Below are positions 12,502-63,756 of a stretch of DNA of 64,000 bases, in pieces. The translations under genes were made by a program, and so were the position numbers. Under the pieces are notes generated by a model. The model did not search any database, was not told the origin of the DNA, and saw only the letters and a list, made by a program, of their open reading frames with translations. Position 1 is the first letter of the stretch, and each line of letters opens with the position of its first letter. Source of the stretch: Paramacrobiotus metropolitanus (Eukaryota > Tardigrada > Eutardigrada > Parachela > Macrobiotidae); assembly GCF_019649055.1 (NCBI RefSeq), contig NW_026570255.1, positions 62,001 to 126,000 on the forward strand, written 5' to 3'.

Positions 12502-14308
12502 TCACCATCCAATCCGAGCTGCCCACTTTTGCAGTTGAACGAGGAAGTGCAGGCACAGCAGCGACAACTTCTGCAGATGCACATCTTCCAATCCGTCCAC
12601 GCACCACTTCGTCCCGTTGTAATGCGCCGACGGATGCGGACCGGCCAACTGCAGTACGCCCAGCATCTGTAAAACCAATCGGCACTTCAACGTCGTCCAC
12701 GTCGTAATAGAAACTGGATGTAAAACACGCATGTCTACCTTGCAGAAGACTTTCTTCACTTCTTCCTCGCGTCTCGGATTCCCGTCCACTTGCAACCGCT
12801 GCAGCAGATTCGACAGCAACTGCAGCTTCTTCTTACTTGGCCGCGACACTGCCGCCTCCATCGCTTCCAAGAATGCGCTGTGGAAAGCACCACCGAGCGG
12901 CAATCGAGCGCTGGCAACGTTGATGGACATGGAAGCACCATAGTCAGGCTTCCAGTTCAGCGACACATCCCCGTTAACGATGTGGAGGGAATCGCACGGC
13001 AGGCTGCCGCTGATGGCGAGGAAATCCTCCAGCCAATAAAAATGCAGTTCCGGCTTGGGCAGACCTTCCCAGGTATGAGCGGTTCTCGTAGTGCCGTGTA
13101 TCAACAAGCGAAGTTGGACGTTAAGCAGATGAAGGCAACGCAGGCGGATGCCGGGCTGATGGTCCGCCACGTACTGGATCATGTCGCACACCAGCATCGC
13201 GTAGTCCGTACTCATCCGCTTGTCAGACAAACACTTAGCGACCACTCGCTGCGTGCCGGGGCGTAGGCAGTGGTATAGAGTCGCAAAGCCAAGAAACGCT
13301 TCGCGTGTGGTGGTGCGGATGACGATCGTTGAACGTAGCACTGGCGCATCCACGATGCAGTTCCATGTTCCGCAGACAGAACGCAGTTTATTCTGTTCCA
13401 CAGTGTCCAATAGGGAGAAGGCTTCCTGCCACAGTTCGGTTGGCAGCGCCACCTGCGTCATCTCGCAGTTGATGGCAGGGGTTGTGTCCGGAGGCCTCAT
13501 GGCTGCGCGGATAAAATTGGTATGGAAAATGTCGTTTTCACTCTGAAAAGCACAGCGACACACGGTAGTAGAAGGAGTGCTTCGGCCCAGAAACCAGTTT
13601 ACCACAGACTTGGGGCGAATCGCTACTTGGTGGGATAATAATGACTTTCATTTGTCTGGGATCAAAAACACAACGATCTCTTACCGACTCTTCTTCGGGT
13701 TCTTCAATCTGGTAGATGTATTGCAGCTTGCCGTTCACGAGGTCCACCGCCACGACGAAAGAGTAGCGTTGAATCCATTTGTCGTCATTCAATCGTTTGA
13801 TCAGCGCCTCGGTTTCTTCCGCCGACGGCGAGCGAAATTCTTCGCCCAGGTCCACAATGCCCTGCTTTAACACGCCTGGCGTAACGGAAGCGAATTGGTG
13901 GCAGTCTTGCTGATATCCGCGAACGCGCTGGATCGGGACGATGTCGGTGTGCGGTGTTCCCGTGTCTGGACTTTTCCAATGGACGATAGCTGCGTTGAAA
14001 TACTTAGTGGTCAGACCGCGTCCAATCTGCAGCAATTCTCCGGCCACCCAGACCCAGGGACCGGCTGGCGTCTCCGGCACCAGAACCTTCCCCGGGTTGA
14101 AAGAGCGGTGACGAGCATTACGAAGCTCTGTAAGCCAGCAAGAAGACGTTTGTTCTGCAAAATAGACGCGCTCGAATGGCGCGTATTCACGTCGCCGATT
14201 GAGACAGTGCAGGTCGATGACGAGGCCATCCTTCGCTACTCCCACCACGTGCCCGTAGCGTAGCCGCTGATCATTGCCCCGCACGAAAACGGCGTTGAAA
14301 TCAGCCAT
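12502..14308 (-). CDS. FMRP-like/F-box family protein, three exons, open
   Basis: Exons 13685-14308, 12739-13542 and 12502-12666 join in phase 0 across introns of 142 and 72 bp (GTAAGA...CAG; GTAGAC...CAG) to give 530 residues. The N-terminal module has both barrel-like units (AVFVRGNDQRLRYGHVVGV, GLVIDLHCLNRRREY; then VLVPETPAGPWVWVAGE ... HTDIVPIQRVR) and the KH0-like segment (VVAVDLVNGKLQYIYQ). Exon 2 carries the F-box (ALPTELWQEAFSLLDT, LRSVCGTWN) and LRR-like part (PGIRLRCLHL). Exon 3 has the C-terminal box (AGPHPSAHYNGTKWCVDG). The 72-bp intron is a multiple of three without stops, so the genomic frame stays open through it; splicing is inferred from the paralogues. Start at 14308 matches the paralogues; ATGs also lie upstream at 14320 and 14353. 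Confidence 0.82.
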
Positions 14309-15749
14309 TCCGCTGGGCATGATGGCTGACGTTCTGCACAAAATCAGATACACCGAAGATGGCTACAACGGTTGTCAATTTACCGACTAACAATCATTCG
14401 AGCTTGTAATACACAGACTGTGACAGACAGGTCAGAATCGCAATGATCTGGTTGGTAGAAAAGCGAATAACTTTATAGTACAAGAAACCAACACGTCATG
14501 GTGCACTTGCAGATTTGGATGCCAATGGATGGAGTGAAAAGCACCTGAGTAAAATGAACCGCTGCACTGAATGCAAGGCCGCTAGCTACGGTCTTTGCAT
14601 TTTAAAGACGCACTCCAGAACGGACCAGAAGTACGAAGAAATGGTGACTGTGAGAGTACTTCGCCGGACAACAATATCGGTACAGTACCTCTCCGTCGTT
14701 TAAGAGCGCATCCGGCTTAAGACGTTACATGATGCAAGTACAATACTATTTCCTCAGTTAAAAACAGCTTAAGCGTCCATCAGTTTTTAAGACCTACGTA
14801 TAAAGTATAGTGTATGACGCACTCGTACAAATGATGAACGAGTATCTTGTGGATCAAGATGATGTCCTATGGATAATTCGCCGTAGCAGCGGAATAGCAA
14901 TGTCCAGGGTTGTTGGTGTATTTAACATTTAGTTGTCTGGTTGGCACCATAGCGAGCATCGTATTCATAAAACATATTTCGCCGCTACATATACGACATG
15001 TAGTGCAGTGTTTTTGCGAGAAGAAGCTTACTTTCTAGTCATCACTGAAAAGAGGGAACAGCTAGCACCGGAACTGAATCCACGGCTGGGTATAACCGCA
15101 GTAGCCCACTGATGGCGTCATACGGAAGCAGGGTGGCCGTAGCAGATCCTGTCGATATTTTTATATATGTGCGAGGTTATTCCGTTAAGCAGTACTAACG
15201 CGAGGTATACTTTCCGCCAAGAGACACGTCTCAACACCGTCGGGAGGCCACGAATTAAAAAAAGAACCTTATCCATGAGACCGACAACATTGCTAGATTA
15301 AATTACAGTATATCGCTCACTCGATCCGCTAGTCAAGATCGAGTGAGCGGTTAGAAATCAAGTCAATCAAATACAATTTAAATACTCAACATACTCCTGT
15401 TGTGCTCCAGTCAATAAAATTCGTGTTTATTATACTTTCAGATCCGCTCTTGCGCAAGAACGAAGCCACATATGGAAGATGCAAATCTGCCGAATTTCTG
15501 AGCGGGGTTAGATAGTGAACAATGTAAAAGCATAACAAGCGGCGCTCGTAATGAATGCAGCACACAGAGAACGGAGTTTGCTTGAAAGCACCAATAAATC
15601 GAAAAGCACGGAAAGCAGCTGTATGTTAGTTGTTAAAAATCCGGGGACAAGAAAACCTCTTCAGAAATACGAATATCAGTGCATTCCGAGCGTTTTGAAC
15701 CAGCCGCAGCGACAGCCAACACCTTTTTCTTGGCAGACGAAATCGACTT
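14309..15749. other. no gene seen; one perfect hairpin
   Basis: No supported gene. A perfect 13-bp stem (CGCTCACTCGATC at 15314-15326, complement at 15337-15349) with a 10-base loop lies in the stretch. Confidence 0.5.
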
Positions 15750-16603: not shown

Positions 16604-19242
16604 TCATAAAGAAAGACCCTTAGATTCGACAACTCCCGGCATTGGATGCTGAAATGCACTACCGACAATGTCCGTCGAGTAAGACGAACAGTCAAAATCC
16701 ACCGTGTAATTTCGGATGAACAACCGTTGGCAGACGTTCGTGAAATCCAGCGGATAGAAATACATAACACTCAAACGGTCATCTTCGGGATCTTGTTCTT
16801 TTCTGGGATTGGCTCGGCTCACACGCACCCGCAGATTCATCAGCATGATCAGCCGGAGTATGCATCGGATTTGTAACAGCTGTACAATAAGGGTCAGATA
16901 ATTGAGAGGGATGCCATCTGTATTGCGGTGGAAGAGATTGTACAAAACCAGTGCGTGAGTGTTGACGTTAACGGTGTGGTGCAGCAAGCGCGCTAGCAGG
17001 TACCCTTCCGTAGTTCGTTGCAGCGGCCATTGCGAACTGAGATTGGCCAAGTCCAGGATGATGCACGCGTCGGCTGCGGGATCCGGCAGCAAAAAATCCC
17101 ACAGTGCACAGGTTCTGTAACAGTTAATTAGCGGTATTGTGAACAAATTGCTTATTATTGTGCACGAGATTCTGAAACGAGTGGTCACGAACACTGCATC
17201 CGAAGGACGTAAGATTAATACGTATTAGTGTTGGTCCGTTATACGTGATCGCACGTAGTAGATAAAAATCCTTTAAATACACCTGCGGAATATGCACTCA
17301 CCGTTTCGCTCTGACTTTAGAGTGGATATCGAGGGATTCCAGGACGAGCGACATGACTTCAGGCGGCAGGCCCTCGAACAATTCATGATCTGCTGTACAG
17401 CCTATACCATATGAATCGAATTTTATGTGCACTTGCATATAATGCATCTACATGGTTACAATTGACATATACATAGATCAGCATATACATATACATAACC
17501 GGGGAAGCATGCTCGCAATATTATTTAAGCGCTTGTCGATAAAAGTTCAACGGGGTAGCGCGGCGTCTGCGCTGGGCACGATGGAAGGGATTGATAAACC
17601 GAATAAAATTTTCTTGTTGCAGTTTTTGTGGTCCTTTCATTATTTTGTCTTAAGTTTGATTTGGCCAACAAAGTTTTGTATATACATAATAGGGAATTTG
17701 CATTTAAATATAGATATAGATATATATTTGGTCATATACATATTACAATACATTACGTACAGATATACATATACCGTACATAAACAGTTACTAACATAAT
17801 TATGCATATACCTAATAATTACATATAAATAATATAGACATGTATTTACACAAGTTTAAGAGCCACAAAAAGACCGGGTGCGCGCAGAATATCCGACGGC
17901 TTTTTTGAACTTCAAAGAAGCCGCGCTATTGTTTACGGCTTCCGCCATTTTGGTGGCTCTTAAACTTGTGTAAATACAGTACACATACACACATATATAC
18001 ATATATACACATATACACATATCTATACACTTATACAAATACATATGCATTAATGCATATACTCATAAAAGTACAAATACAACTGCATATTATACACATG
18101 CATGTACATATCCATTTTATATATATACGTATACAAACACGATATTGCATGTACTGTATTTACACAAGTTTAAGAGCCACAAAAAAGACCGCGCGCAGAA
18201 TATCCGACGGCTTTTTTGAACTTCAAAGAAGCCGCGCTATTGTTTACGGCTTCCGCCATTTTGGTGGCTCTTTAACTTGTGTAAATACAGTACAATTTCT
18301 GTATACATATGCAGTCACATTTCGGTAAATTAGGTTTCTCCTTATTTTGCAATCGCAAAGAATGCTATGTTAAATGTTTCGGTAATTCTGTGAATGTCCC
18401 CTACCGGATATCGTATACCGGCCATCAGGGCATCGCTCTGGCCTTCCATAGTACTGAGACAGATAATGTTCCACACCAGCGGAAATTCTCTCCGCAGTAT
18501 TAATTGTCCACGACATCGGTTCCCATCCGTTTGGGCAGGCGAACGGCGCTATGTGCGAGCACTGCATGTGCCCAATCAAGAAATATATAGTTGTCGCATC
18601 TATGCGCACAAACAACCAGTCCTTCATCTGATACTCTCTCTCCCGTTTTCCCCCTCGGAACACCATATCCAGCATCCGCGTAAGACGATATTCGTCAATA
18701 TTCAACAGTTCCAAGGTCTTGGCAGGGATGATCACTTTCTTTAGGCGGAGCGACTCGTCTACTTCGTCCGTTGGAAACCGCGGGATGCTTTCAATATCGA
18801 CCATTTGCCAGCGATGTACAATGTGAAACTCTTGCCCGTGATCCAAAGAATTCACAACGACGCAACTGAGTAGCAGATTCGCCTCCATACTGTTCTGCAC
18901 CAGTTTCCCTGGGCGGTATACATAGGGACCAGTGGGAGTGTTACGCAGTGCAACATACACCGGTTTGTCCCTCATTATTTTATGGAGAAGATCGTACGGT
19001 TTCCAAGGAAAGGTCTGCGCTTTCTTAACAGGAACCCAGCACGGCGGAATATCGGCACAATCGAAATCTATAAAGAGACGATAGCCGTCCGCGTCTTGAC
19101 ATGTATCTTCGTCCGTGTCTTGTACGAATCCCAGGTAGAGTTCGTCGGCAATCAAATTAACCATCACCACATTGCCGAGGTTAAAAAGTCCACGACGTCG
19201 TCCCGTCGAGAAATACGCGTTAAGAGCAGGCTGAAACGCCAT
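16604..19242 (-). CDS. divergent F-box family member, three exons
   Basis: Exons 18405-19242, 17302-17392 and 16604-17114 join in consistent phases (1, then 2) across introns of 1012 and 187 bp, giving 479 residues. Exon 1 has the family's N-terminal layout but is strongly diverged: GNVVMVNLIADELYLGFV / YRLFIDFDC, then VYVALRNTPTGPYVYRPGK, and a KH0-like stretch ending DWLFVRIDATTIYFLIG. The F-box is split across exons 2 and 3 (GLPPEVMSLVLESLD / VRAKR / TCALWDFLL). The usual DPRPS-type C-terminal box is not found. A downstream open frame on the same strand (16390-16607; YRKPQWRELRHLLKL) could be a further 3' exon, but no phase-compatible splice was found. The first intron holds two MITE copies and a TACATA-type microsatellite. 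The organisation supports common origin of the three N-terminal units. Confidence 0.68.
17841..17978. mobile_element. MITE copy 1 (~138 bp)
   Basis: Starts TGTATTTACACAAGTTTAAG and ends in its inverted complement, giving ~26-bp terminal inverted repeats; the inside is the same as the copy at 18155-18289 apart from a few changes. No coding capacity. Flanks GACA and GTAC do not form an obvious target duplication. Confidence 0.8.
18155..18289. mobile_element. MITE copy 2 (~135 bp)
   Basis: Second copy of the element at 17841-17978 with the same ~26-bp terminal inverted repeats, same orientation. Directly flanked on both sides by GTAC, a possible 4-bp target-site duplication. The superfamily is unclear. 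Confidence 0.8.
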
Positions 19243-20913
19243 TTGTGGATTGAATGGGGCACTTGCAAAGTGTGCGAATTTGCAGGATTAACTTTCTGGA
19301 TACAGGAGCCCAAGTTTAAGTGCACTGCGCTGAGTTGAAATAGCACACTGAGCAGAGCACAAAGCAGGCTTTCTAAACGATAATCCAGCAAGAGAAAATC
19401 AATAGGCTGTATCGTCTAGACTCTTCTTCATAACGCAGTAGGTAGTGCTGACTACACCATATAATGTGCTTTCGCAGACGGTGACGTATGGGGAGAAGTA
19501 CACATCGGTTCTCGGTACGTACGTTTGAACTCCTGTACCCCTTTACCTGCAACTCATGGGAAGTTATCTAGCCATCTCTATCTGTGATTCGTTACTACAG
19601 ACTCTGTACTTGTACATAGCCATGTATATGATGCGGTCATAAGACAAAGTCTATATAAGCATAAAGCAGATAATAGGCTACGGTTTTCCCTAGTATCGGA
19701 TTACGGTCGGATTTAGTCTTACTCTTTCTGATTTCCTTGAGTTGTGAAATGCGTTGTGAGTTAATAAGGGGCAGCATCTTCCGAGTTGATTGACATTCAT
19801 AGTCATATTTACGGATTATAGCGTAACTGCCGCATGGTTTGCTCGTGGCTTAACTGGTTACTCATGCCTAACCCACGTAGTAAACGCAGTACCCGCGACC
19901 GGAAGTTAGACTCGTGTTCCTGAAGGGTCCCGGCTTAGGGATTCCTGACCGTTCTACCCATCATATTCCGCATCGTTCAGAATCACCATAACCCAGTTGA
20001 AATAGGAGTGTTCTTCTTATTGAGTCGTGGATGGGAATTGGATGAAACTCTACCTTGCCGTAGCTAGTCTTATTCTACCACGACTACGGAATACTCTGCA
20101 CAGACAAAGCATAGCTCTGAAACGCTTTTTAATACTATTATGAGTTGCAGTCGCATAACAATACCATATGCACACTTGCAGCAACACTGTTACGCCGCAA
20201 ATGTGAGTACAGTTTGTGCTAATACCGGTATACATAGATAGATATTATATTTCTACGTTCTGTCGCTCTGTACGTCGTACCTGTAATCATCCACCGGACG
20301 TGCTCGAATCGAACAGAAAATCAGTAATGCAATAAAGAATGTAAAAATCAAAGGGGATGAAATAAAACTTATAAAGCAAACGAATTTGTCCTTACAATTC
20401 TGAAAAGGGAGCGTTCAACATAACCACGAACACGGCAAATATAATGTACAATATTAGCATACTTGTGCATGCGAATGCATAGAGAGAGACTCCGTTCCGT
20501 CTACTCTAAAGGTCAGACACCGTCGTACCTTAAATGGCAGCGTAAACTCTAATAAAAATGCTTGCCACCGAAATCTGACTGCGAGATTTTCGCCGTAGCC
20601 TTTGATGTCGACACTTTTTCGGAAGCAGTTTAGAAGCAAAGTAGTTTTGGCAAAACCGAGAAAGAATCTACAAGATCGGTTGCATCATTAACGACTCAAA
20701 AGGACCGCTTTCGCGGGAGCATGCTAATGGCTGCAACACGTTTTCAATAACTTTCCGCTGTTTTCGTAATAGCCTTGTTTTAAGCAGTTTTGAAGTACCG
20801 TTAGCGCATTGCACTGGGTCCAACCGGAAGGCAGTTGAGTGCATCCTGAACGTGCAAAGCGTAGTGCGTGCATCCCTGCGTAGTGCGACTAGCGAACTGT
20901 AGTGCAGTGCATT

Positions 20914-27508: not shown

Positions 27509-28999
27509 TTAACATTGTCGTGCCCTAATCACACATTTATACGAAATACAGACAAAAATCATGGAAGGCTGCCACATGCCCATCTTACTTGACGAAACAG
27601 AAAAAAAAGGCGTACGCCAACTGGAAAACAAGCACGCAATTTGGCAAATCTCGACGAGATGACTACTAATTCTAACGCTACCGTCAGTCGTCCAGATCCG
27701 CCATTCCCCGATGGTAGCGCCGGTTCCCGATGGAAGTGCCACCTGCAGAAAGTGCAGCGTCGTACGCGACAGCTTCACCAACTGCCAACCTTGCAGTCCG
27801 TCATGGCACCATCTCTTCCCGCGGTAGTGAGTTGACGGACGCGGATCGCTCGACTGGACAGCACACATCATCTGCCAAAAAACAACCATTAGCCCCTATC
27901 GTGATATTGCCGGGCTAATGCCTATTGGAGAATTCGTTGCCTACTATTGTTCGACAACAATAAAGAGAATCATAGACCACATGGCTGCACGAATGCGAGC
28001 TCCAATACCGCTGGCAGATTGTCTTGGATTTGTGAAATTAAAAATAGGCTTCGTGTTGCTCTTCGTTGGTCGAGTCGTACAAATTTTACGACCATGACGA
28101 AGGCAACCTACGAAATCCTTACCTTGCACACGGCATCGTAGAATGGCTCGTTCTCATCCTTACCGGCCACCCTTTCGGACCACTGGACAAGCACTTGCAG
28201 CTTCGCATCACTCAGCGCCGGCAACACCGCTTCGCAAGCATTCCACAACGTGCAGCCAAAATCCCCTTTCAACTCCAGACGGGTATCCATAAACAGCATC
28301 TCCACAACAGGACCCTTTGTGCATTAGTCCATGTTGTCAGCCTTAAATGGGCAGTACCATTTAGTCGTACAGTTGACCATACGCAGCGATTCACACGGCA
28401 AAGCGCCGTAGATTCCAATGAAATCCTTCAGACGGCAATGACCACCCTTCCGGCACGGTGTATACGGCTCCTTGTGCGATGCCTCCGTGCCGTGCAATAC
28501 GCACGCGCTGCGGGAAAAAAAGTGATCGGTGGCGCGGTTGACCAGGAAGGACATCCGCCAGCCGACCAGGTACAGCGTGGTTAGACGGATGCCGGGTCGG
28601 TGCTTGGCCATGAAGGGCAGCACGTCGACAAGATGCAGCACGTCCTCAGTGCACATCTTTCCCTTTCGATCAACCAGCGCCACACGGCGCGTGCCAGGCC
28701 GGAGACACTTAAAGAGCGCCGTCGAGGAGAGGAAATGCCAGTGTCGTTTAGAATACCATTTGCAACGGACGAAGCGTTCAAGGACGATGCAGGCAGCGAG
28801 CACCGGCGAATCCAGGATCAGGTTCCAGGTGGCGCAGACGGCACGCAGCCGCGTCTGCGTCACCGTGTCCAACTGGCAAAATGCTTCCCGCCACAGTTCC
28901 GTCGGCAACGCACGATAGTCTTCCTTTTCAACCGCCTCTAACGCGCTTCTGCGCAAATAGTTAGATCGTCTCACTTCTCTTAATATGTCCTGAAAATTG

Positions 29000-30994
29000 G
29001 TAAAACCGCAATATAGGGATATGGCCAGTTTTGCAAAAAATGGGCTGATTATCGACGTATCCTACTCAGAATTTTTTTCTGAGTCGAATGGACCGGGACA
29101 ACGATGGTTCCGAAGTCACGTGACCGAGCTATGGGCTAATTTGCATATGGGCTTACCATAGTAAAGTAAGCAAATACCATACAAAAAGACGGTGCATTAC
29201 TTGTTTTGTTCAGAAAAAATTCTGAGTCGAACAGTACCCATCTCAGGTGAATAATAAATCACGTGACCAAATTCTAAATTTTTTTAAATTTCGTCAATTT
29301 TCGGGCCTTTTTTAAACTAAGGCAGAAGAAGGAACAACTAAACGCAACGCTACTCCTTTCTCTAAACGATACATGAATAACTGACACCCCAGAATTGATT
29401 TGGTTTCGTTCACTGTTTCGCAGTTTAGGTTACCTCTTTCTTATGTTTCCTCGTTATATTTCTTATGATTTCTTATAACTTTTGTGTTGTCTTATGCTTC
29501 TTGTAATTCGTATATTTCGTTGTTTTTACGATATCCTGTACTTCTTAGATTTTATTTTTTAATGATTCGCCAAAATAGATGTTAGCTTGTGACCTTCAGA
29601 TGACCTTACCCAAAGGTCACGACGATTCATTTCAGAGGAACGGAGTCGTTGACGTCATCAGCGTGTCCTGCTTTCGTGGGTCATTTTACCATTTTGTACG
29701 TCACCGTGGTTAAATAGCACGAGAATGACTACTTCTGCGCATAACATTGCTGTGAGTTGTTACTTTTCCTGTCTCGTTTAAAAAAACGAGTAACATTGCT
29801 GTGGGGTGTTGTCACTTCTGTCTCGTTTAAAGAAAGAATTAACACTGCTTTGGGGTGTCACCAGTTCTTTCTCGTTTAAAGAAAGGAATAACATTGCTAA
29901 TGGGTGTTATTAGTTCTGTCTCGTTTAAAGAAAGGAGTAACATTGCTGTGGGGTGTTACCACTTCTGTCTCGTTTAAAGAAAGGAGTGATACTGCTGTAA
30001 GGTGCTACCTCTTCTGTTTTGCTTAAGGAAAGGAGTAACGTTAGTTTGAGGTTCTACTTCCTCTGTTTCGTTTAAAGAAAGGAGTAACACTGCTGTGGGG
30101 TGTTACCACTTCTGTCTCGTTTAAGAAAGGAGTAATACTGCTGTGAGGTGCTACTTCTTCTGTTTTGCTTAAAGGAAGGTATAACATTGCTGTGAGTTAT
30201 TACTTTTCCTGTCTCGTTTAAAGAAAGGAGTAACATTACTGAGGGTGTTACCACTGTCTCTGTTTGAAGAAAGGAGTAATACTGCTGTGAGGTGCTACTT
30301 CTTCACTTCTTCTGTTTTGCTTAAAGAAAGGAGTAACATTAGTTCGAAGTTCTACTCCTGTCTCGTTTAAAGAAAGGAGTAACGCTGCTGGTAGCTGTAA
30401 CCAGCCCATATGTCTCTTTTAAAGAAACCAGTCACCTAGCTGTGAAAACACAAATTGTCTGAGAAATTACGCGAAAATAAGTTGGCTAAATAATAGCATT
30501 ACCGCTAAGCAACTATTATTTAATTGTAACTGTTTTCAGTATTTCAGTCAAGTGACCTTTGTGACCTAGTTTGACCTTTACGAGTGGAAAAAAATATGAG
30601 TCGAACGTGTCATTTATGACGTATATATGACGTCATCAGCAAGAAGGAGTATTAAACTCCTTAAATCCAGAAATGATTGAATAAATTTCATAACTTGGTC
30701 ATGCGATCTCTGATCGACGTGATTCACGTATCATTCGACTCAGAATTTTTTTCTGAGTCGAATTTTTTTTTTTCATTCGACTCAAACTAGCTATAAAACG
30801 TGTGTTTATCACAGGTATTACATAAAAAACTATGACGAAGCACCTAATATGCAAATTGACCCATAGCTCAGTCACGTGACTTCGGATCTGCTCCTGTCCC
30901 GGCACATTCGATTCAGAAAAAAATTCTGAGTAAGGAGCATCATCAATCTTGCCATTTGAACCTTTTTTGGCCGTATCCCTATCTTGCGGTATTG
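29000..30994. mobile_element. long-TIR element, 11-bp target duplication, in intron
   Basis: CCTGAAAATTG occurs directly on both sides (28989-28999 and 30995-31005). The ends are inverted: ACCGCAATATAGGGATATGG on the left and ACCGCAAGATAGGGATACGG on the complement of the right. Similarity continues inward for 150 bp or more (ACTCAGAATTTTTTTCTGA, GAAGTCACGTGAC, ATTTGCATAT). The middle is a minisatellite. No transposase frame. Long TIRs and an 11-bp duplication fit Mutator-like or fold-back elements. The duplicated site, read on minus, is a splice acceptor (CAATTTTCAG/G). Confidence 0.75.
29736..30440. repeat. minisatellite, ~50-bp unit, about a dozen copies
   Basis: Imperfect tandem repeats of a unit such as GGAGTAACATTGCTGTGGGG...TTCTGTCTCGTTTAAAGAAA fill the middle of the intron element. 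Unit length varies from 48 to about 55 bp. Confidence 0.9.
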
Positions 30995-31827
30995 CCTGAA
31001 AATTGCACAACAACGCACGATTTCAAGTACGGATTCGTTTAGTTTCGTAGGAGCATCGTTTTTATAATTACCGAAAGGAATAGATCCATAAAGTCGTAGC
31101 GCATGCCGCGATCGTCCGCTTTGTAAGTGCAGACCAACTGGTCAGCGACGCAATCGACCACGCAAACATCCGACCAGGGTTTATACGGCTCACAATTAAA
31201 CCAAAGCTGAATGAGTCCTTGTACTTCCTCCGCTGACAGCTGACGCAGCTGTTCCTTCAACGGCTCACCGCGACGGATGAACTCGCCGGAAGTCATCGGT
31301 CGGTGCAGTGCAGTGTAGATCGTGGGAGATGCCGCGCGTCGTTTGAGCTCACCTGTCACCATCGCATGCAGTTGATCCCGTCCCGGAAGCATATAATGCT
31401 TATCGAGGTAATCCTGAAATAGCGGGCAGACGATGCGCTCGATGGGGACTACTTCGGTGCAGGAAAGTCCCGTCACAGCATCCTGCCACTGGACAACCGG
31501 GGCTTCATAGAGCGCGCAACGCACACGGCGGCCGTGACAGGATATTTCCCCCGGGACCCACATCCACGGAGCGGAGGGCCTCTCCCGCACCAGGACAAGC
31601 ACGGGAATGCTCGGCAATTGGGATGCCTAGAGTGCGGCTAGAAGATCTCCGGGAAGAACGCGCGGCAAGAAGCAGTTTTCGATCGAGTAACATTCGCGTC
31701 GCCGGCCGGGACACATCAGATCGACCAAGAACCCCGTCTCATGGACGCCCACCAGGCGGCCGAAGCGCAGTCGGCCGTCGCGGCCCAGAACATGCACGCT
31801 ATTTTTCTGTTGAAACCCTCCGCACAT

Positions 31828-32539: not shown

Positions 32540-33672
32540 AGGCCAACGGGATCTGCATGTGGAACAGCGTAGACGTAATGGGCCACGACGACATTCTAGG
32601 TTACGGGCACGTCGTGGACGTGGGCGAATTCGGGCTTTTCGTCGACCTCCTCGGCCCGCAGCCTCGCCCCGAATTCATCCCCTTTGGCCGCGCTTTCCTG
32701 ATCGATTATCATCACTACCTGGATCCGCAGAAACTAGCTACGGCTTGTCGCCGCTTCGCCAGCTCCCGCCGGTAGAGGTCCTGATGCGGGAGAGTGCATC
32801 TCTCCCGTGGACATGGTTCCCGGGGAGATTTCCAGCTTCCCACCAGATTTCCATCCATTGTTCTTGGTACAAGGAGGTGGTGGTCTGCGTGGAACTAGCC
32901 ATGGAACACACCAATGTCGTCCCGTTGGCGCGGGTTCGCTGGGACAGCCTGTTGACGGGGTATTGCCCCAATGCGTGAGGCAGTCGATGTTTGTTAGACG
33001 CTGTCTGCCGTTGCCGGATAACACTTCCCAGGCGGCGATATCCGACGCGCTCGAGCAGCGAAACCGTAGGTCCATCCATTCGCCTGCGCAAGCCGCCAGC
33101 GTGGATGTGGTGAACGGTTGTGTCGTCTACATTCAGCGCCGATCCGACACCGACAAGGAACTCGTAAGCAAATAACTCCGGGTTGTTGAATTCTGTAATT
33201 GTGCAACACTTTGGCTAATTATAACACTATTTTACAGGAAGCTCTATACATCTTCCACCGCAAGTTTGGCGACTACACTTCCCAGATGCCAGACAAGACG
33301 CCGGTCATCCCACCAAAGAGCAAAACTTCGGCACTTTACGAGGTCATCCCGTTGCCAATGGAGATTTATCTGGAAGTCTTCTAGCATTTGGACACTTTAA
33401 CGCAGACGAAACTGCGCGCTGTGTGCGTAACGTGGAACGCTATTGCGGGTTCGCCTTCCTTAACTGCCACCCTCGTTCTGGACAGCGCGGCCGTTGGCCC
33501 GATCCGTGCAAACAAGGAATCGGGACTGACCTGTTCTATCCTTGCTCCCGTTTACAAAAGCTTCTTATCGTCCACGCAACGCATTGCCCTCACTGACGAC
33601 GGACGCTGCCTCGAAGGCAACACAACACCGAAACTGGAAAAGGCTCACGGCTGTTTTGAACTGGCGGTATGA
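32540..33672 (+). pseudogene. F-box family gene, degraded
   Basis: Closest to the copies at 40933 and 58947. The expected start ATGGCCAACGG is AAGGCCAACGG at 32540; a later ATG (32557) leads into NSVDVMGHDDILGYGHVVDV. A base is lost near 32760, throwing LPPVEVLMRES out of frame, and further shifts follow near 32825 and 32870. The KH0-like end (SVDVVNGCVVYIQRRS) is still readable. A 74-bp intron (33164-33237) leads to the F-box exon, where the F-box itself has a TAG stop (LEVF*HLDTLTQTKLRAVCVTWN; 33382-33384). The homology ends at 33640 inside the LRR-like part, just before a repeat field. It cannot encode the family protein. Confidence 0.78.
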
Positions 33673-37419: not shown

Positions 37420-39729
37420 CTAAAAGCAGAATTCCATCCAAAGATTGGTCTTTAGAAGGTCAGCAAGAACGTGCAGGGTAAGGCGAGACAGCTTCTCCAG
37501 TTGCAGTTCTCCCAGCCCGTCCAAGCACCACTTCTTCCCGCGGTAATGCGTCGACGGACGCGGATCAGCCGACTGTACCCCGCAAAGTGTCTGCAAAACA
37601 AATCCCAGTTGAGGTATTTTTTTTTTCGAAATCGCATCAGAATCGGTAGAATAGCATGACTTCTTCTTACCCAGCAGATGACTTTTTTCAGCACTTTCTG
37701 TTCATGACAAATATCCTCGTCACCCACTTTCAGCCGCTGGAGTAGTTTGTGCAGTTTCTCCGCAGGCGGCTTTGGTAGCGCCGCCTCCAACACATTCCAC
37801 AACGCGCTAGCAAAGTCCCCACCAAGCTGTAAACGAAGGCTGTGGATAGTGTTCGCGGTCCGTGCATTAAACTCCCGACGATTGATGTCGAAGGAGCAGA
37901 CCAGTTCAACTACACCCTTCGTTATGAGGATCTCATCGCAGGGGAAGCGGCGGCATACGGCAATGAAATCCTTCAGCCAACCATAACCGAATTCCGCGTC
38001 ATGCGTCGACTGGGTTGGAGAGTGATGCATGGCGTTTGTACAGTATGTGTTGTTAATCATCGAGTGATATAGAATGCGGTGTAGATGCATGGTACGCAGT
38101 CGCATTCCGGTCTGGCGAGCAGCCACATACTGCATCACGTCGCTCATCGACCACGCGCAAGCCTTGAAGGACCATAGTGCTTTATCCAAGCCGATGGTCA
38201 GACGATGCGTACTGGGGCGTAAGCAGTGGTAAAGAGTGGTCATGATGAATAGCTGTCGAATTTCGTTGCGGATGGCAATCCTGGAACGCAGCGCTGGCGT
38301 CTCCATGATGCGGTCCCACATTGCGCACACGGCACGCAGCTTCGTCTGGTTCAGGGTGTCCAAGTGCGAGAAGACCTCCTGCCACAATTCCGCCGGCAGC
38401 GCCACCTGCACGATACCGTCATGGACCGGGGTTTCCTCCGACTTCTCGTTATGAACATCCTTCACCTTCTTTGGCAAGTCTTTGTGGATCCAGTTATCGT
38501 CGTCTGTTATCTGCAAATCGTGCATCACGTTATTACTGTAGCAAAGTTCGAATGGTCAGCGTTCTTGTCGCGACTAAGCAGTCAACAAATGTTTTGTTAC
38601 TGACAAAACGTCCTTGGAATACAACAAACATTGACAGACGATATTTTTTAACACATTGTACCCGATAAATGTATCTCAGCTCGCCGTCCACAAAGTCCAC
38701 CATAAATACTGTAGCCGCTAGATGAAGTGGCTCCACAGAGTCTGGTATACGGGAAAATGCAGGCCCAATATACACACACTGCTCCGTGCTGAATTGTGTT
38801 TGATTTCAAACCATTTTCACTCTTCTGCTGACGTTCTACATGTTTTACTGAGTTTCTTAATTTTAGCAACGTACGATTATTATTGTAAGAGCATAATGTC
38901 ACAGCTCTGATAGTTTTCGATTTATGAATCTGGTTTGTTGTGGTTTTTGGGGTGCCCCTGGCAGGGGCAGAGAACAGTTAGCAACAGTACTAATATCGAG
39001 AAGCAAAGTGCGCGCCTCCCGGTGGCAGGAAGGCTCGTGCTCAATGCCCGGCCAGGTGCAGGCAGCGGGCGGATCTAAACGTGGAGCCACTTCATCTAGC
39101 GGCTACAGTATCTTCCAGTGCCGAAGCTCGCTGTTATTCACGTGCTTAATGAGCGCTGCAGCTTTATCAGTAGAGAGCAAGCGACATTCTTGGCCCAGTT
39201 GCACGCTGTGCATGGAAAAGGTGCCTGGACGGACGCAATGGCGCAGTAAAGGGTCGTCATTAGCTGCCTGACTTCCAAACCGACACGAATCTATTTCTGT
39301 CAGCGGTTTAAAACGTCTTGCCTCATTTAGCCAAGTGGATACATCCAAAAGAGGGCGGACGCGCTGAGCGGAAACGAAATCGGTGCATAGCACTCCCATG
39401 TCTGGACTCAGCCAATGAACAACGGCCCCGGTGTATGTTTCCCGCGGTGGTAGACTCATTTCGCCATTCTGCCAAATCCACGGACCCGATGTTGTTTCCG
39501 GCACCAGAACCTCAACCGGAAAGACGGACTGCTGCTGAGAACGAAAGTGGTAGAGATCGCTGTGCTCCATTCTGCGCTTAAGGAATATGCTGCCAAATGG
39601 CGCGAATTCGCGTCGCCGATGGGGACAGCGCAGATCAACGAAGAGGCCATCTTCTGCCACATCCACTACGAGCCCGTAACGCATCCGTTGATCGCTGCCC
39701 AGAACGTCCACGGCGTTATCGCGGTCCAT
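37420..39729 (-). pseudogene. F-box family gene disrupted by a MITE in exon 1
   Basis: Exons 38662-39729, 37671-38510 and 37420-37590 join in phase 0 (introns 151 and 80 bp). Exon 1 starts MDRDNAVDVLGSDQRMRYG like the intact gene at 61938 and carries both barrel-like units (VEVLVPETTSGPWIWQNGE, CTDFVSAQRVRP). At 39108 the frame runs into a 400-bp MITE with TA target duplication, giving a stop within three codons. Immediately beyond it the frame resumes with FMVDFVDGELRYIYR, the end of the KH0-like segment. Leaving out the MITE and one TA gives 222 + 280 + 57 codons without another lesion. The F-box (ALPAELWQEVFSHLDT, LRAVCAMWD) and C-terminal box (QSADPRPSTHYRGKKW) are intact. The MITE is thus the only visible cause of inactivation. 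Confidence 0.85.
38709..39108. mobile_element. 400-bp MITE with TA duplication (Tc1/mariner-like)
   Basis: Perfect 28-bp terminal inverted repeats beginning CTGTAGCCGCTAGATGAAGT, flanked by TA on each side (38707-38708 and 39109-39110). No coding capacity. TA duplication points to Tc1/mariner-type mobilisation. It interrupts exon 1 of the F-box family gene. Confidence 0.88.
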
Positions 39730-40932: not shown

Positions 40933-42808
40933 ATGGCCAACGGCGTTTCCCAATGGAACAGCGTGGACGTCATGGGCCACGACGCCCGACTCCGTTACGG
41001 GCATGTGGTGGGCGTGGCCGATGTCGGGCTCCTTATCGACTTTCTGTGTCCCAACCGTCGCCGCGAACTGGTCCCGTTCGATCGGGTTTTCCTGAGCGAT
41101 CGCAGGCGCTGCCTGGACGCGCACAAACTGGCCGCGGCCTGTCACCGCTTCGGAACGCTCCCGCCGGTGGACATCCTGATGCGGGAAAGCGCAGCCGAAC
41201 CGTGGACCTGGTACCCCGGGGAGATCTGCAGTCTGGTCCGCAGTCTCCACTACTCATGGTACCGTGAGGTGGTGGTTCGTTGGCATCACGGCGCGGAACA
41301 TGCGGATGTCGTTCCGCTGACGCGCATCCGCTGGCGCCTGCCTGTGTACTGGTGGAAGGGGACCGCGACCGAGGACGAGTACGGGAATTTGCCCGAACGC
41401 GTGAGGAAAGGGATGTTTGCTGCGCGCAGTATTGTATTGCGGACAGATCGCTTCCCATTGGTTAGCGCAGCGCTCAAACACCGTAACACGGAGGCAGCTC
41501 ATTCCGCGGCGCAAGCAGCTGGGGTTCGTGTTACGCATGACCGTGTAGAGTACGTCCAGCGCCAGTATGCCCCGGTTGCACAGCGCCGAGAGATGACCAC
41601 TGTTGAACCGGTAAAAAGCGTTTCTTGTGGCAGTAACGATCATCATTCTGTCATGTATCTTATGACCTATCATGTCTCCTATCATGGGTTTCCTATCATG
41701 TCTCTTGTGGCGCTAAATTGCAGGAACCTCTCATCATCTTCCATCGCCAACTGATGGATTACGTTTCGCTGATGCCGGAGCCTGCGCCGCCGCCGACTGT
41801 AGACATGTATGAAGGTGCTGTGTTACCGGATGAACTGCAAATCTTCTCCTTCCTTGACACACTAACGCAAACGAAGCTGCGCGCTGTGTGCACAGCGTGG
41901 AACTATGTAACGGAATCGCAGTTTTTAGCTGCCAATCTCGTTCTCGATACTGCGGCCGTCCGCAAGACCCGACCATGCAAAGATTTCTGGCTGACGTACT
42001 CGCTCCTTGCTCCGCTATTCAAACGCTTGTCTTTGTCCACGCAACGGGTCCTTCTCACTGATCGCGGACGCTGCCTCGAAGGTAGCCACGTGATTAAGGT
42101 CTTGGACATGATCCACTTCGTCGCACAGCGCATTCCCGCAATCCGACTGAAAACGATTCGTTTGCATCGATTAGATTTCAGTCTGATGATCGCCACGCGC
42201 TACGACACGGTGACATCCGACGGCGAACCATCCGCCTGTGTGCTGCATCAGCCGCGTGATCCGTCCCGCAACTTTAGCATCAATCTGGCCGGTTTCATCA
42301 GCGCCTGCAGCAACCTCCCTGTGGAAGTCTCTATTTGACAAACTGCACCATCACGTTGGAGTACATGGTATCGCTCATCGAGAGACAGAGTGAACTGGTG
42401 TTGCACGTCCCGACCCGCGTGACGCAGCGGGTTGCGGGCGACGGGGATGTCGAATGCGCGGTGTGGAGGGCGCTGGAGTCGGGGCTAACGGCACCCACTC
42501 AGGAGCAACTGCATCGGTTGGTGGAGTGTCGGACCGCCATGATAGCCGCCGTCACGGCGGGTGAAGACTGTCGGGAATTTATGGCCACTGTCTGCAAGGT
42601 GAGGTCTACCGATACGAAGAAACCTGCCAAGTATTAATTTTCTTTTTGGCAGATGCTGTGTGCAGCGCAGTCGGCTGATCCGCGACCCTCGACGCATTGC
42701 CGCGGGAAGAAGTTTTGCTTGGACGGTATGGAGCGTATTCGTACGAAGAAGTTGTCGGTAGTGGCGCTGCGGTTCCTGCGCCAGTTGGCGTTGTGCTGGG
42801 TAATTTAG
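40933..42808 (+). pseudogene. F-box family gene with a single 1-nt frameshift
   Basis: Exons 40933-41610, 41724-42598 and 42653-42808 (introns 113 and 54 bp). Exon 1 (226 codons) is complete: NSVDVMGHDARLRYGHVVGV, LLIDFLCPNRRRELVPFDRV, VDILMRESAAEPWTWYPGE, HADVVPLTRIRW and the KH0-like end VRVTHDRVEYVQR. Exon 2 has a divergent F-box (VLPDELQIFSFLDTLTQTK, LRAVCTAWN) and LRR-like part (PAIRLKTIRLHRLDF). Near 42321 one base is missing: CSNLP is followed by a stop, while the next frame continues LYLTNCTITLEY and PTRVTQRVAGDG. Exon 3 has the C-terminal box (QSADPRPSTHCRGKKF). Exon 2 is 875 nt instead of a multiple of three, in line with one lost base. A sequencing error would also explain it. Confidence 0.82.
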
Positions 42809-54062: not shown

Positions 54063-54117
54063 GTCAATAAATAATAACTATAAAAACACATTAATGAACT
54101 GTCAGCCCACCCACCGT

Positions 54118-56975: not shown

Positions 56976-57822
56976 CGACGAAGAGACCATTGGCTAAAGA
57001 TGGTCTCTTCGTCGATCTCCTCTGTCCCCACCGGCGACGCGAATACGCGCCATTGGGCAGCGTCTTTTTTAAGAGCAAAATGAATGACAACGATCTCTAC
57101 CATTTCCGTGCTCAGCCGCAGTCCGTCGTTCCGGTGGAGGTTTTGCTGCCGCAGACAGCATCGGGTCCGTGGATTTGTAAAAATGGCGAAATGTGCCTAC
57201 CCCCGGGAAACCTACACCGGGGCCGTTGTTCATTGGCAGACTCCGGAAACGGGAGTGCATTAGACCGACTTCGTCACCGATAGGCGCGTTCGACCTCGTT
57301 TGGATTAAATTGGATGTACCCACTTGGCTAAATGAGACAGGACGTTTTAAAGCGCTGACGGAAATAGATTCGAGTCGACTTGGACGTCGGGCCGCTGATG
57401 ACACCCTTTACTCCGCAAATTGCGTCCGTCCAGGCGCTTTTTCCATGCACGGTGTGCAGCGGACCAAGAATTTCGCTTACTCTTTGTTGATAAAGCTGAA
57501 GCGGTCATTACAGCACGTGAATGACAGCTAGCTTCGGCACCGGGGGATATTTGTGGTGCAGTTTATGGACGGCGAGCTGAGATACATTTATCGGGTACGA
57601 TATGTTAAAAAATATCGTTTGCGGTTTGCCCAAAGTTTGTTTTATTTCAAGGACGTTTTGTCGTAACAAAAATTTGCTGAGTCGAGACAAGAACGTTCTT
57701 TATTTGGACTTTGTTATAGTAATAACGTGATGAGCGATTTGCAGAAAACATGCGACGATAACTGGATCCATGAGGACTTACTTAGGAAGGTGAAAGATAA
57801 CCATAACGGGGAGCATGCTTGA
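56976..57822 (+). pseudogene. F-box family gene, 5'-truncated and degraded
   Basis: Starts inside the first barrel-like unit (KDGLFVDLLCPHRRREYAPL). It runs through the second (VEVLLPQTASGPWICKNGE) and the KH0-like end (VVQFMDGELRYIYR), then an intron nearly identical to that of the 37420-39729 gene (GTACGATATGTTAAAAAATA) and 60 bp of exon 2, ending in TGA. Several frameshifts and stops lie within. The 5' junction is a fold-back: CGACGAAGAGACCAT (56976-56990) is the exact inverse of 57000-57014. The F-box and the rest are missing. Confidence 0.78.
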
Positions 57823-58946: not shown

Positions 58947-61003
58947 CTATCGCATCCCGTTCATCGCCAGCCTGTAGAGGAAGTGCAGTGCCAACAAGGA
59001 TAGTTTTTCCAGCCGAACATTCTTTACACTGTCCACACAAAACGTCTTCCCGCGGTAGCGCTGCGACGGACGCGTATCAACCGACTGTGTCGTACACAGC
59101 ACCTACCACGGAACCAACGATTATCGATACGGTTCGTTGGTCGCTAAATTGGTCGGCCGATCGGACTTACCTGACATATAACGCTGACAATTTCCAGGCG
59201 GTCCTGGGTGAACAGCTCGGCCAGACGGCGCCACTGCTCCTTTGTAAATGAAGGCAGTCCGGCCTCCAGTGCAGCCAGCACCGCGAAGCCGACATCGCCG
59301 TCCCCCGCAAAACGCTGCGTAACAGGGATCGGTACGGACAGCAAAAGGTCCCGCCACTTATCCATGGATGCTACGTTGCACTCCACCGTGATAGTGCACC
59401 GCGTTTACTGGATACTTTTGCATGGGAGATTGCTGCAGGCGTTGATGGAATCTCCCAGACAGAGGCGGGAGTCGCGAGACGGTTCACGCAGCCGATGGAA
59501 ATTACTAGCGGATGGCTCCGTATCGGACGCCAGGATGTCGTGGCGGGATCCCATCATCAGGCAGAGTTCCACTCCGTACAGATGAATCGTTCTCAAGCGG
59601 ATCCCGGCAATTCGTTGTGCAGCGAAGTGAACCATGTCCAACACTTTCAGGATGTGGTTATCCTCGAGGGCTTGAGGTCTTAAAATATTTCGCTGCGTGG
59701 ACGATGAAAGGCGTTTGAGGACCTGAACAAGCAGGAAATAGAATAGCCGAGAATGTGTATTGACGTCCGTGGTAACGAGAACGAGGTTTGCTGTTAAAAC
59801 TGGCAGTTCCAGAATAGTGTTCCAGGTTGCGCAAACAATGCGCAGCTTCATCTGCGTTACCGAATCCAGAAACGAGAAGACTTCCGTGGATAACTCGATC
59901 GGCAGCGCAAGGACCTCACCCTCTCCTGTAGTCCCGATATTCGACGGTGGAAATGGTATCCAGGAAATGTACTGGACTAAACGGTTATGGAAACTGTGGA
60001 GTTCCACCTGCCAGTGGTGAAATACTACCGTAAGAGGCCTAGACTCCAACTCTGACTCTGACTCTGATTCTGACCACTCAAACTCTGACTACTCAAAGTC
60101 TGACTCTGACTGCTCAAAGTCTGACTCTGACTCTGAAGGTTTCTTAGGTTTCTTAGGTTTCTTAGGTCTGTTAAGTTATTCTTAGGTTATTCAGTCAGAG
60201 TCAGAGTTTGGACAGTCAGAGTCAGACTTTGAGCAGTCCGAGTCAGAGTTTGAGCGGTCAGAGTCTGAGTCAGAGCTTGAGCGCGGGCCACTGTAAGATG
60301 CGTGCTAGGAGTATTTGGCTAAACCAGGTATTAGTTTACTTACAATTTCGCTTGCATTTCTGGGTTTCTTGTCGCTGTCGGGTCGGAGAATATACAGCAC
60401 ACAGCCATCCACAACGGCCACGCCGACAGCTCTCGCAGCGGCGCACTCTGCGTTTATCTTGTGCTGCTCGAGAGCGGCGGCCACCGCCACCGGGGAACTG
60501 TAATTCGCCAACGGCAAGCAGAGCTTGGCAAAAGTGCCCTTAGTTACGCGTTCCGGCAGTTTCCCGTACTCATCTTCCGCCGCGCCGGTTGTCCACCAGT
60601 TAGCCGGCAGTCTCCAGCGGATTCGCGACAGTGGAACGACATCCGCGTGCTCCACGGTGTGACGCCAGCGGACCACCACCTCGCTGTACCATGAGTGATG
60701 CATGCTGCGTACCAGACTGAAGATCTCGCCGGGGAACCACGACCACGGCTCAGATGCGCTCTCCCGCACCAGAATCTCCACCGGCAGCAGCTGTCCAAAA
60801 CGGCGGTAGGCTGCGTCCAGCTTGTCCGCGTCCAGGCAGCGGCTGCGACTGCTTAAGAATACCCGGTCGAACGGGACCAGTTCGCGCCGTCGGATGGGAG
60901 ACAGAAAGTCGATGAAGAGCCCGACGTCGGCCACGTCCACCACGCGTCCGAAACGGAGTCTCGCGTCGTCTCCAAGCACGTCCACGCTATTCCAGTGATG
61001 CAT
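58947..61003 (-). pseudogene. F-box family gene, single nonsense codon
   Basis: Exons 60344-61003, 59171-60007 and 58947-59102 join in phase 0 (introns 336 and 68 bp) to 551 codons. Exon 1 is complete (NSVDVLGDDARLRFGRVVDV, LFIDFLSPIRRRELVPFDRV, VEILVRESASEPWSWFPGE, HADVVPLSRIRW, KH0-like VAVVDGCVLYIL). Exon 2 has the F-box (ALPIELSTEVFSFLDSVTQM, LRIVCATWN) and LRR-like part. Exon 3 has a diverged C-terminal box (QSVDTRPSQRYRGKTF) and the same 52-codon length as in the 40933 copy. The only lesion is TAA at 59405-59407, where the related fragment at 21.9 kb has a leucine codon (HLTRYTITLE): a single T-to-A change would explain it. Intron 1 holds a fold-back element. Confidence 0.83.
60036..60292. 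mobile_element. fold-back hexamer element, copy 3 (in intron)
   Basis: Arms of ACTCTG hexamers around TTTCTTAGG units, close to copy 1. Starts GGCCTAGACTCC, ends GAGCGCGGGCCACT. Flanked by perfect 6-bp duplications GTAAGA (60030-60035 and 60293-60298). It sits within intron 1 of the F-box family gene. Confidence 0.85.
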
Positions 61004-61937: not shown

Positions 61938-63756
61938 ATGGACCGGGATAACGCCATGGACGTTCTGGGCAGCGATCAGCGAATGCGTTACGGGCTCGTC
62001 GTGGATGTGGCTAAAGATGGTCTGTTCGTCGATCTGCGCTGTGCCCACCGGCGACGCGAATACGCGCCGTTCGGCCGCATCTTTTTCAAGCGCAGAATGG
62101 ATGACGACGATCTCTGCCGTTTTCGTGCTCAACAACAGTCCGTCGTTCAGGTAGAGATCCTGGTGCTTGAGACAGCATCGGGTCCGTGGATCTGGCAAAA
62201 CGGTGAAATGAGCCTTCTACCGCGAACCTTGTACGGCAGGGCCGTTGTTCATTGGCAAAGTCCGGACACGGGAATGCCATGCACCGACTTCGTTTCCGTC
62301 GAACGCGTTCGTCCTCGCTTGGATGTATCAACGGAAAGAAACTTGCGGCGCCGTGCCGCTTTTGGCGACCCCTTACTCGGCGATTGCGTCCGTCCAGGCG
62401 ACTTTATGATGGGCAGTGCGCAATTGAGCCGGAAAGTTCGCTCGCTGTCCGCTGAGAAAATCGAAGTGCTCATTAAGCGAGTTAAGGACAGACAGCTTCG
62501 GTCCCAGCGAGCATTTGTGGTGGACGTCGAGGACGGCAAGCTCCAATACATTTACCGGGTACGTTGTGTTGGAAAGTATCGATTGCGCAAACACGTTTCG
62601 ACAGCATCAAAGGTGTCGTTAAATCGATGCGAGAGTTTTGCTCATATCGAATTTGTTACAGTAATTATGTTTTTTACGGTTTACAGAACAACCACAATGG
62701 GAACAGCATCAAACAGGTCTTGCTTAGAACGGTGAAGGATTACCATACCGATAAGCCGGAGGAGGATCCTAACGTTGACCACAGCGCGCTTGTGGCGCTG
62801 CCGTCGATAGTATGGCAAGAGATCTTCTCCCATTTGGACACCGTGCATCAGACGAAGCTACGCGCGGTGTGCGCAAGATGGAACCGCATCCTGGATACGC
62901 CAGCACTGCATTCCACGATTGCTATCCACAACGGTGTTCGGCATTTTCTTAACCTGTCCTGTGTCTACCAATGCTTCCGCCCCAGTACACAGCGCTTGGC
63001 CATCAGCTTCGACATCGCTTTGTGGTGGGTTACCAACGACGCGCTGTCTGTGAGCGAATTGTTGCAGTATCTGGCCGCTCGTCAACCCGCGATCCGACTG
63101 CGCACCATCCATCTGCACGGCGTCCTAGTTTACTCGGCGATTAGCTGCAGATCCGACGAACCTCTCGGTGCCGAGTGCGCCCTGCATCCTTCTCCCTTCG
63201 CGTCCACGCACGATGCGGATTTCAGTTATGGTTGGCTGCAGGATTTCCATGACGTATGCCGCCGTTTTCCGTGCGATGTGGTCCTTATAACAAATGGCGT
63301 CTTCCATTTGGTCGCCTCGTTTGATGCCGGATTGACTTGTCAGACGAGGATCCGTATCCGCAGCGCCCGCTTAGTGCGGCGTGGTGACGACTTCGCTAAC
63401 CCTTTGTGGGATGCGCTGGAGGCGGCGCTGCCCGAGCCGTGTGTGGCGAACCTGCACGAACTACTGCAGCAGTTGAAGATGGGCGGGTATCCCAATGAGA
63501 AAGTGCTGCGGAAACTCTTCTGCACGGTATGAAAGACGGTCAGGCTGTGATAATGCTTCTTTTGCGACTTCGAAAAATCTTTCACGGGGATTCCATTTTG
63601 CAGACACTGTGTGGGGTGCAGTCGGCTGATCCGCGGCCCACGGCTCATTACCGCGACAAGAAGTGGTGCGTGGACGGGCTGGAAGGACTGCGGTTGGATA
63701 AGTTGTCGCGTCTCACCCGACACTTTCTTGTTGAAGTGCTGAAGAGGTCCGCTTGA
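61938..63756 (+). CDS. FMRP-like/F-box family protein, three exons, intact
   Basis: Exons 61938-62558, 62687-63526 and 63604-63756 join in phase 0 (introns 128 and 77 bp) to 537 residues; the best reference copy in the window. Residues ~5-50 are the first Agenet/Tudor-like unit (MDVLGSDQRMRYGLVVDV, GLFVDLRC...RREYAPFGRIF). Residues ~68-126 are the second (VEILVLETASGPWIWQNGE ... CTDFVSVERVRP). Residues ~150-207 are the KH0-like segment (VRPGDFMMGSAQL, AEKIEVLIKRV, FVVDVEDGKLQYIYR). The F-box is at ~244-282 (ALPSIVWQEIFSHLDT, LRAVCARWNRI), an LRR-like part follows (PAIRLRTIHLHG), and exon 3 is the C-terminal box (QSADPRPTAHYRDKKWCVDG). The intron after residue 207 separates the FMRP-like module cleanly from the F-box part. 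Predicted role: SCF ubiquitin-ligase adaptor whose front end binds a methylated protein or RNP; the latter is inference. Confidence 0.87.

What the first reader, a model, noticed from the sequence alone, without database searches (positions are those of the whole stretch)
61938..63756. FMRP-like N-terminal module fused to an F-box: a possible new ubiquitin-ligase adaptor family
Every well-preserved copy starts with three units in fixed order: a short barrel ending in a PF..(I/V)F-type strand, a second unit with a conserved W-x-W/W-F followed by GE, and a segment ending in a (V/D)xxxGxLxYIY-type strand. This order and strand pattern resemble the tandem Agenet/Tudor plus KH0 module at the N-terminus of FMRP/FXR. 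An intron separates the module exactly from an F-box/LRR-like/C-terminal box part. A fusion of an RNP- or methyl-reader front end with an SCF adaptor would be a new architecture. The F-box is visible directly; the FMRP relation is my inference from pattern memory.
Basis: partly seen in the sequence, partly recalled or inferred. Interest (0 to 1): 0.92.

Follow-up and report, generated by a model that had tools for sequence, protein, structure and literature searches.

The report
Tardigrade F-box proteins with FMRP-like heads
A water-bear genome carries a large family of likely protein-destruction adaptors, undescribed as far as searched, whose front part has the same three-part fold as the fragile-X protein FMRP.

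The parts
61938..62558 (+). exon 1: Tudor1 (model strands 6-50), Tudor2 (69-126), KH0 strands and helix (157-206)
62559..62686 (+). intron 1 (GT-AG), inside the KH0-like unit
62687..63526 (+). exon 2: predicted last helix of KH0 (by comparison with the 552-aa copy), F-box (residues 245-282) and most of the C-terminal part
63527..63603 (+). intron 2 (GT-AG)
63604..63756 (+). exon 3: conserved C-terminal box and stop
5583..7238 (-). intact intronless paralogue, 552 aa; FMRP-like fold over residues 7-245, F-box at 259-298
12517..14317 (-). paralogue: N-module 13694-14317, F-box/C part 12517-13491
16607..19287 (-). divergent relative: open module 18373-19287, F-box-like exon further on, exon 16607-17224; join made by eye
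27746..31815 (-). probably one damaged paralogue: N-module 31207-31815 and C part 28183-29013 each hold a stop
32563..33600 (+). degenerate copy with several stops
37450..39729 (-). close paralogue: N-module 39106-39729 (last KH0 strand missing), C parts 37674-38495 and 37450-37590
40936..42787 (+). divergent paralogue: N-module and C parts
56990..57594 (+). N-module relic in three frames with stops
58977..61003 (-). neighbouring paralogue on the other strand: N-module 60308-61003, C parts downstream
2..568 (+). C-terminal part of a paralogue cut by the window edge (N-module lies upstream, L052)
2339..2596 (+). N-module fragment

Best explanation
The gene encodes an F-box protein whose N-terminal part (exon 1 plus the start of exon 2) is a divergent homologue of the FMRP/FXR N-terminal domain (Tudor1-Tudor2-KH0), without KH1, KH2 or RGG. 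It belongs to a large gene family in this tardigrade genome. Most likely it is a substrate adaptor of an SCF (Skp1-Cul1-F-box) ubiquitin ligase: the F-box binds Skp1, and the FMRP-type front end and/or the faster-evolving C-terminal part binds the target, plausibly an RNP-associated or methylated protein. Shown here: homology, predicted fold, architecture, copy number, constraint. Inferred: Skp1 binding, ubiquitination, nature of the substrate.
Against: No biochemical evidence. The target alone matches no FXR Pfam model. Type-A profiles alone give FXR1 in the PDB only at E 0.38 and 1.0, level with or behind chance-like uL24m hits. KH0 alone is not significant by sequence (3 of 60 shuffles as good). 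One candidate Trp of the Tudor2 pocket is not kept. rmsd values are high (5.8-7.7 A). P0004's F-box is under the cut-off. In 2 of the 14 C-half pairs printed, dN is higher in the F-box than in the C-terminal part. In divergent relatives the F-box is less sure: of 5 joined pieces 2 pass a cut-off, 1 is under it, 1 has E 0.022 and 1 no match.
Confidence: 0.75

Rival explanations
1. The front end is some other tandem Tudor/Agenet pair (plant AGDP, Sgf29, 53BP1, UHRF1 type), not specifically of FMRP descent, fused to an F-box.
Confidence: 0.06
2. The FMRP-like module works by pairing with FXR or FXR complexes, so these F-box proteins control the turnover of the true FXR protein and its RNPs rather than of foreign or chromatin targets.
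For: One place in the genome matches both KH_9 and Tudor_FRX1 over cut-off, the FXR gene at C5. In human cells SCF-Fbxo4 uses Fxr1 as substrate through Fxr1 residues 173-192, and that paper cites published Fxr1-FMRP heterodimerisation (PMC5688124, passages).
Against: So many copies seem too many for one substrate. No interaction data.
Confidence: 0.2
3. The repertoire is an arms-race set (innate defence or toxin-antidote like), as proposed for nematode F-box families, with the FMRP module as a platform that brings members to RNA-protein particles of viruses or retroelements.
For: Many clustered, partly decayed copies; faster C-terminal evolution. Precedents: F-box A2 family with a captured N-terminal domain proposed as binding platform (PMC12062965, passages); F-box antidotes that degrade FARS-3-derived toxins (PMC12680543, passages).
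Against: None of the 25 N-module pairs and 14 C-half pairs printed has dN/dS above 1; site models were not run. No expression or infection data. No cognate partner identified.
Confidence: 0.25
4. The expansion is mostly non-functional duplication driven by mobile elements, with few working genes.
For: Several copies in the window hold stops or frame changes; reverse-transcriptase-like ORFs lie in the cluster (judged by eye).
Against: Most listed matches show no stop inside. The five closest N-module pairs have dN/dS 0.24-0.36. RefSeq lists gene models, one gene with isoforms.
Confidence: 0.1

Closest known systems
FMRP/FXR N-terminal domain (human FMR1 4ova/4qvz, FXR1, FXR2; P. metropolitanus fxr1-like P0005)
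   Same: Tudor1-Tudor2-KH0 in the same order and fold; collinear profile alignment; 193 of 199 FMRP residues aligned in the intronless paralogue
   Different: 16-19% identity in the structure alignments with the FMRP Tudor-Tudor-KH0 entries; no KH1, KH2 or RGG; F-box and another C-terminal part instead; variable linker before KH0; at least 60 matches instead of one FXR gene
Nematode F-box families (A1, A2, B) and KSS/KSL proteins
   Same: large lineage-specific F-box expansions; constrained F-box, faster other part; A2 carries an added N-terminal domain (PMC12062965, PMC12680543, passages)
   Different: their added domain is a transposase HTH, not FMRP-like; no FTH match in the Pfam scans here
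Plant Agenet/Tudor proteins combined with F-box
   Same: a Royal-family domain together with an F-box, per a figure legend (PMC4634149)
   Different: no KH0 with F-box mentioned in the passages seen; not compared directly here
FBXL-type F-box/LRR proteins (FBXL3)
   Different: weak match, LRR nature not established

Membership tests
FMRP-type N-terminal module | two tandem Tudor/Agenet barrels | tested here: met
FMRP-type N-terminal module | KH0 directly after Tudor2 | tested here: met
   by predicted fold: FMRP aligned to target residue 207 and paralogue residue 245; sequence of KH0 alone weak
FMRP-type N-terminal module | Pfam Tudor_FRX1 over cut-off | tested here: not met
   target none; 1 of 24 type-A modules matches at E 0.00095; three family-B exons (L033, L034, L035) are over cut-off
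FMRP-type N-terminal module | Tudor2 methyl-lysine pocket (V66, Y95, E104 and a Trp in FXR1) | tested here: inconclusive
   V/I 22, W 22 and D/E 24 of 24 at the aligned positions; the Trp is invariant if it is FXR1 W78, not kept if W79
FXR/FMRP protein family | KH1 and KH2 (PF00013) and RGG tail | tested here: not met
   Pfam scan of the target shows F-box only; the true FXR P0005 is listed with PF00013
F-box protein | F-box domain over Pfam cut-off | tested here: met
   PF00646 28.9 bits against 20.5; PF12937 27.2 against 24.3
SCF substrate adaptor | binds Skp1 and promotes ubiquitination | not testable with these tools
   no biochemistry
Agenet PF05641 | match to the Pfam model | tested here: not met
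   0 matches in the genome at E<=0.001, 7 candidates scored
FBXL (F-box plus LRR) | LRR solenoid after the F-box | tested here: inconclusive

The most novel reading that the evidence does not exclude
The tardigrade turned the FMRP N-terminal reader into the head of a ligase-adaptor repertoire of hundreds of genes. Each member couples recognition of RNP-type or methylated proteins to SCF-driven destruction, as an innate surveillance or selfish-element control system aimed at ribonucleoprotein particles.
Probability: 0.3. Interest if true: 0.92.

Novelty: new variant of a known kind. Interest (0 to 1): 0.77.

Why it matters
FMRP's N-terminal module is known in animals as part of a conserved, low-copy RNA-binding protein (recalled). 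Here it is detached from the RNA-binding domains, joined to an F-box and multiplied. That gives a natural experiment on what the module binds, and a concrete set of candidate E3 adaptors in an animal group known for stress tolerance. It adds a case, beside nematode and plant families known from the literature, to the question of why F-box adaptors expand, with a front end whose relatives are well studied. The RefSeq models of the family returned here with a name are all called 'uncharacterized'.

Tried and rejected
Pfam and phmmer on the single target N-module gave nothing useful. The 5-sequence and 24-sequence type-A profiles against the PDB put FXR1 only at E 0.38 and 1.0, level with or behind uL24m; only the wider profile A7 reached significance. 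In A7, 7 of 18 rows (6 divergent sequences and L038) had first been found with an FXR-Tudor HMM, so it is not independent; the type-A hhalign test without L038 is.

Family D is linked less directly: 3 modules against FXR give probability 16 over Tudor1 only (no shuffle of 60 as good), against type A 60.6 and against family B 80.6.

My first pairing count was loose: it took part of the rows and gave 48 of 61. One search recounted all 130 rows: 60 N, 55 C (2 rows in both), 17 in neither, 47 of 60 paired.

Homologues outside P. metropolitanus: the profile search returned 10 proteins, 9 named P. metropolitanus and 1 unnamed on a contig of the length of C195. Hypsibius proteins are in that database (P0006), but only the 8000 best candidates were scored and divergent families were not searched there, so absence elsewhere is not shown. 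Foldseek's own scores could not be had. For the C-terminal part no row is firm; that proves nothing.

Literature, open-licence papers only: 'tardigrade + F-box + gene family expansion' and 'Paramacrobiotus + F-box' gave 0 papers; 'tardigrade + F-box' gave 9, none by listing on such a family; 'F-box + Tudor domain + lineage-specific expansion' gave 1, on ARF GTPases; 'FMRP + F-box + Agenet' gave 3.

Full report
WHAT IS THERE. The gene 61938-63756 (+) has exons 61938-62558, 62687-63526 and 63604-63756, with GT-AG introns, and encodes 537 aa. Pfam finds an F-box at residues 245-282 (E 9.5e-07) and nothing in the N-terminus. The window is C35:62001-126000 of a 170 Mb assembly. C35 is 1,253,618 bases long, the length of the longest contig of P0004, a RefSeq protein of Paramacrobiotus metropolitanus, so I take the organism to be that tardigrade.

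THE N-TERMINAL MODULE. I aligned 24 open N-modules of this type (A3). Against an alignment of the true tardigrade FXR proteins (P0005, P0006) and human FMRP, hhalign gives probability 96.6, score 68.5, E 5e-10, with columns 7-178 on FXR 3-145 in one collinear stretch. hhalign E-values of a single comparison are not calibrated, so I shuffled: 150 column shuffles reach at most 21.2, 150 block shuffles at most 34.9, and the reversed profile scores 12.0. A 36-sequence set without L038, the one member of A3 first found with an FXR HMM, gives the same score. In pieces, Tudor1 scores 42.6, Tudor2+KH0 35.6 and Tudor2 22.7, each in the right register and above all 60 shuffles; KH0 alone (15.7) is not distinguishable, with 3 of 60 shuffles as good.

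A database view: a profile of 12 type-A and 6 divergent tardigrade sequences with no true FXR (A7) was searched against 177,635 distinct PDB sequences. FXR1, FMR1 and FXR2 chains are the 6 significant hits (E 3.1e-11 to 3e-8); the next is 0.67. No other Tudor or Agenet protein is among the 10 listed, although such structures are in the PDB. Caveat: 7 of the 18 rows, the 6 divergent ones and L038, entered through a Tudor_FRX1 search. With type A alone, FXR1 is at E 0.38 (5 sequences) or 1.0 (24 sequences), level with or behind uL24m.

POCKET. The paper on FXR1/FXR2 names the Tudor2 pocket residues as Y95, W97, V66 and E104 of FXR1 (PMC2970552, passages). By the alignment the family has V or I (22 of 24), W106 for Y95 (22 of 24) and D or E (24 of 24) at three positions. 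The FXR1 chain printed has no Trp at 97; I read it as W78 or W79. The first aligns with the invariant W86, the second with a variable position. A reader pocket is possible but not shown.

EXTENT. The target protein finds 130 exon matches in the genome (81 of 1787 candidates scored, so a lower bound). Sorting all 130 rows: 60 cover the N-module (at least 50 residues), 55 the F-box/C part, 2 of them both, and 17 are short pieces. 47 of the 60 have an F-box/C match within 3 kb downstream on the same strand. Of the 13 others, the two at C35:806121 and C35:1141654 have a PF12937 match within 2 kb downstream.

DISTANT RELATIVES. The Pfam model Tudor_FRX1 finds the true FXR (7.9e-11) and 26 weaker places, 3 of them over its cut-off; KH_9 finds only the true FXR. 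Loci behind these hits show divergent groups, sorted by eye: B (L040, L041, L042, L044, L048), with Tudor1, Tudor2 and a KH0-like exon; C (L036) and D (L039), with the module in one exon; E (L046, L047, L049). A family-D query has at least 151 matches (150 of 747 candidates scored). Family B aligns with FXR (hhalign 95.2, columns 21-191; 0 of 300 shuffles as good). Family D does so only over Tudor1 (probability 16), but joins type A (60.6) and B (80.6) over about 93 columns, with 0 of 60 shuffles as good each time. So D's FMRP descent is indirect.

F-box in the 13 divergent loci looked at (L036/L043, L039/L070, L040, L041, L042, L044, L046, L047, L048, L049, L071, L072, window 16607-19287): over a Pfam cut-off in 4 (L044, L046, L049, L072). 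Under cut-off or by eye only: the window member (1.1e-04), L071 (0.022), L070, L041 and L048 (no Pfam match to an F-box). In L040 and L043 I saw only a second-half motif; in L042 and L047 no clear F-box. An exon split '...R | xCALW / VCWRW' recurs in L044, L070, L071 and L072. The genome has at least 149 PF12937 matches (150 of 997 candidates scored); how many are FMRP-headed was not counted.

CONSTRAINT. Nei-Gojobori dN/dS is 0.24-0.36 in the five closest N-module pairs. Medians over pairs with dS under 2 (215 of 276) are Tudor1 0.28, Tudor2 0.42, KH0 0.46, linker 0.57 (fewer pairs per segment). In the C half (29 sequences, 23 pairs with dS under 0.7) F-box dN over dS is 0.23 and the rest 0.53; 2 of the 14 pairs printed go the other way. 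Mean identities: Tudor1 0.61, Tudor2 0.48, KH0 0.37, linker 0.26, F-box 0.59, C-terminal part 0.35. So the F-box and first barrel are held, while the linker and C-terminal part drift. No printed pair exceeds 1; site models were not run.

MECHANISM. Steps shown: homology, predicted fold, fusion, multiplication, constraint. Steps inferred: Skp1 binding through the F-box (general knowledge of F-box proteins); target choice by the FMRP-type front end and/or the C-terminal part; ubiquitination. Precedents support the logic: a nematode F-box family with a captured N-terminal domain proposed as binding platform (PMC12062965, passages), F-box antidotes that degrade toxins derived from a host gene (PMC12680543, passages), and human Fxr1 as substrate of SCF-Fbxo4 (PMC5688124, passages).

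COMPARISON AND NOVELTY. It is not an FXR protein (no KH1/KH2/RGG) but carries an FXR-type N-terminal module. It is an F-box protein by Pfam. Agenet/Tudor with F-box is mentioned for plants in a figure legend (PMC4634149), so a Royal-family domain plus F-box is not unheard of. The Tudor-Tudor-KH0 plus F-box architecture was not found in the listings. A tardigrade genome paper and the P. metropolitanus transcriptome paper do not contain the word F-box in their main text (PMC5531438, PMC11191345; term searches).

The odds for the target are unchanged, since none of this touches it.

Noticed in passing
window 22523-24874 (+) and 49509-50939 (+): Long ORFs that look like reverse transcriptases of LINE-type elements lie among the F-box gene copies (judged by eye).
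   Followed up: no
G000:C5:3432252-3434141 (-), L045: The true FXR gene appears as one open frame covering Tudor, KH0, KH1, KH2 and an RGG-like tail (P0005, RefSeq 'RNA-binding protein fxr1-B-like').
   Followed up: partly
G000:C27, C43, C7, C8 and others: Divergent family D has at least 151 matches, many on C27; it may be among the larger gene families of this genome. Its link to FMRP is indirect.
   Followed up: partly
L044, L070-L072: An intron at the same point inside the F-box recurs in divergent families B and D but is absent from the target, whose F-box lies in one exon; it could help to order the families in time.
   Followed up: partly
window 48001-56000: Marked negative GC skew (-0.14 to -0.35 per 2 kb), against values within about 0.11 of zero elsewhere in the window; it overlaps an RT-like ORF.
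   Followed up: no
window 60040-60280: Simple repeats built on GACTCTGA/TCAGAGTC in both orientations, between the N-module and the C part of the minus-strand paralogue.
   Followed up: no
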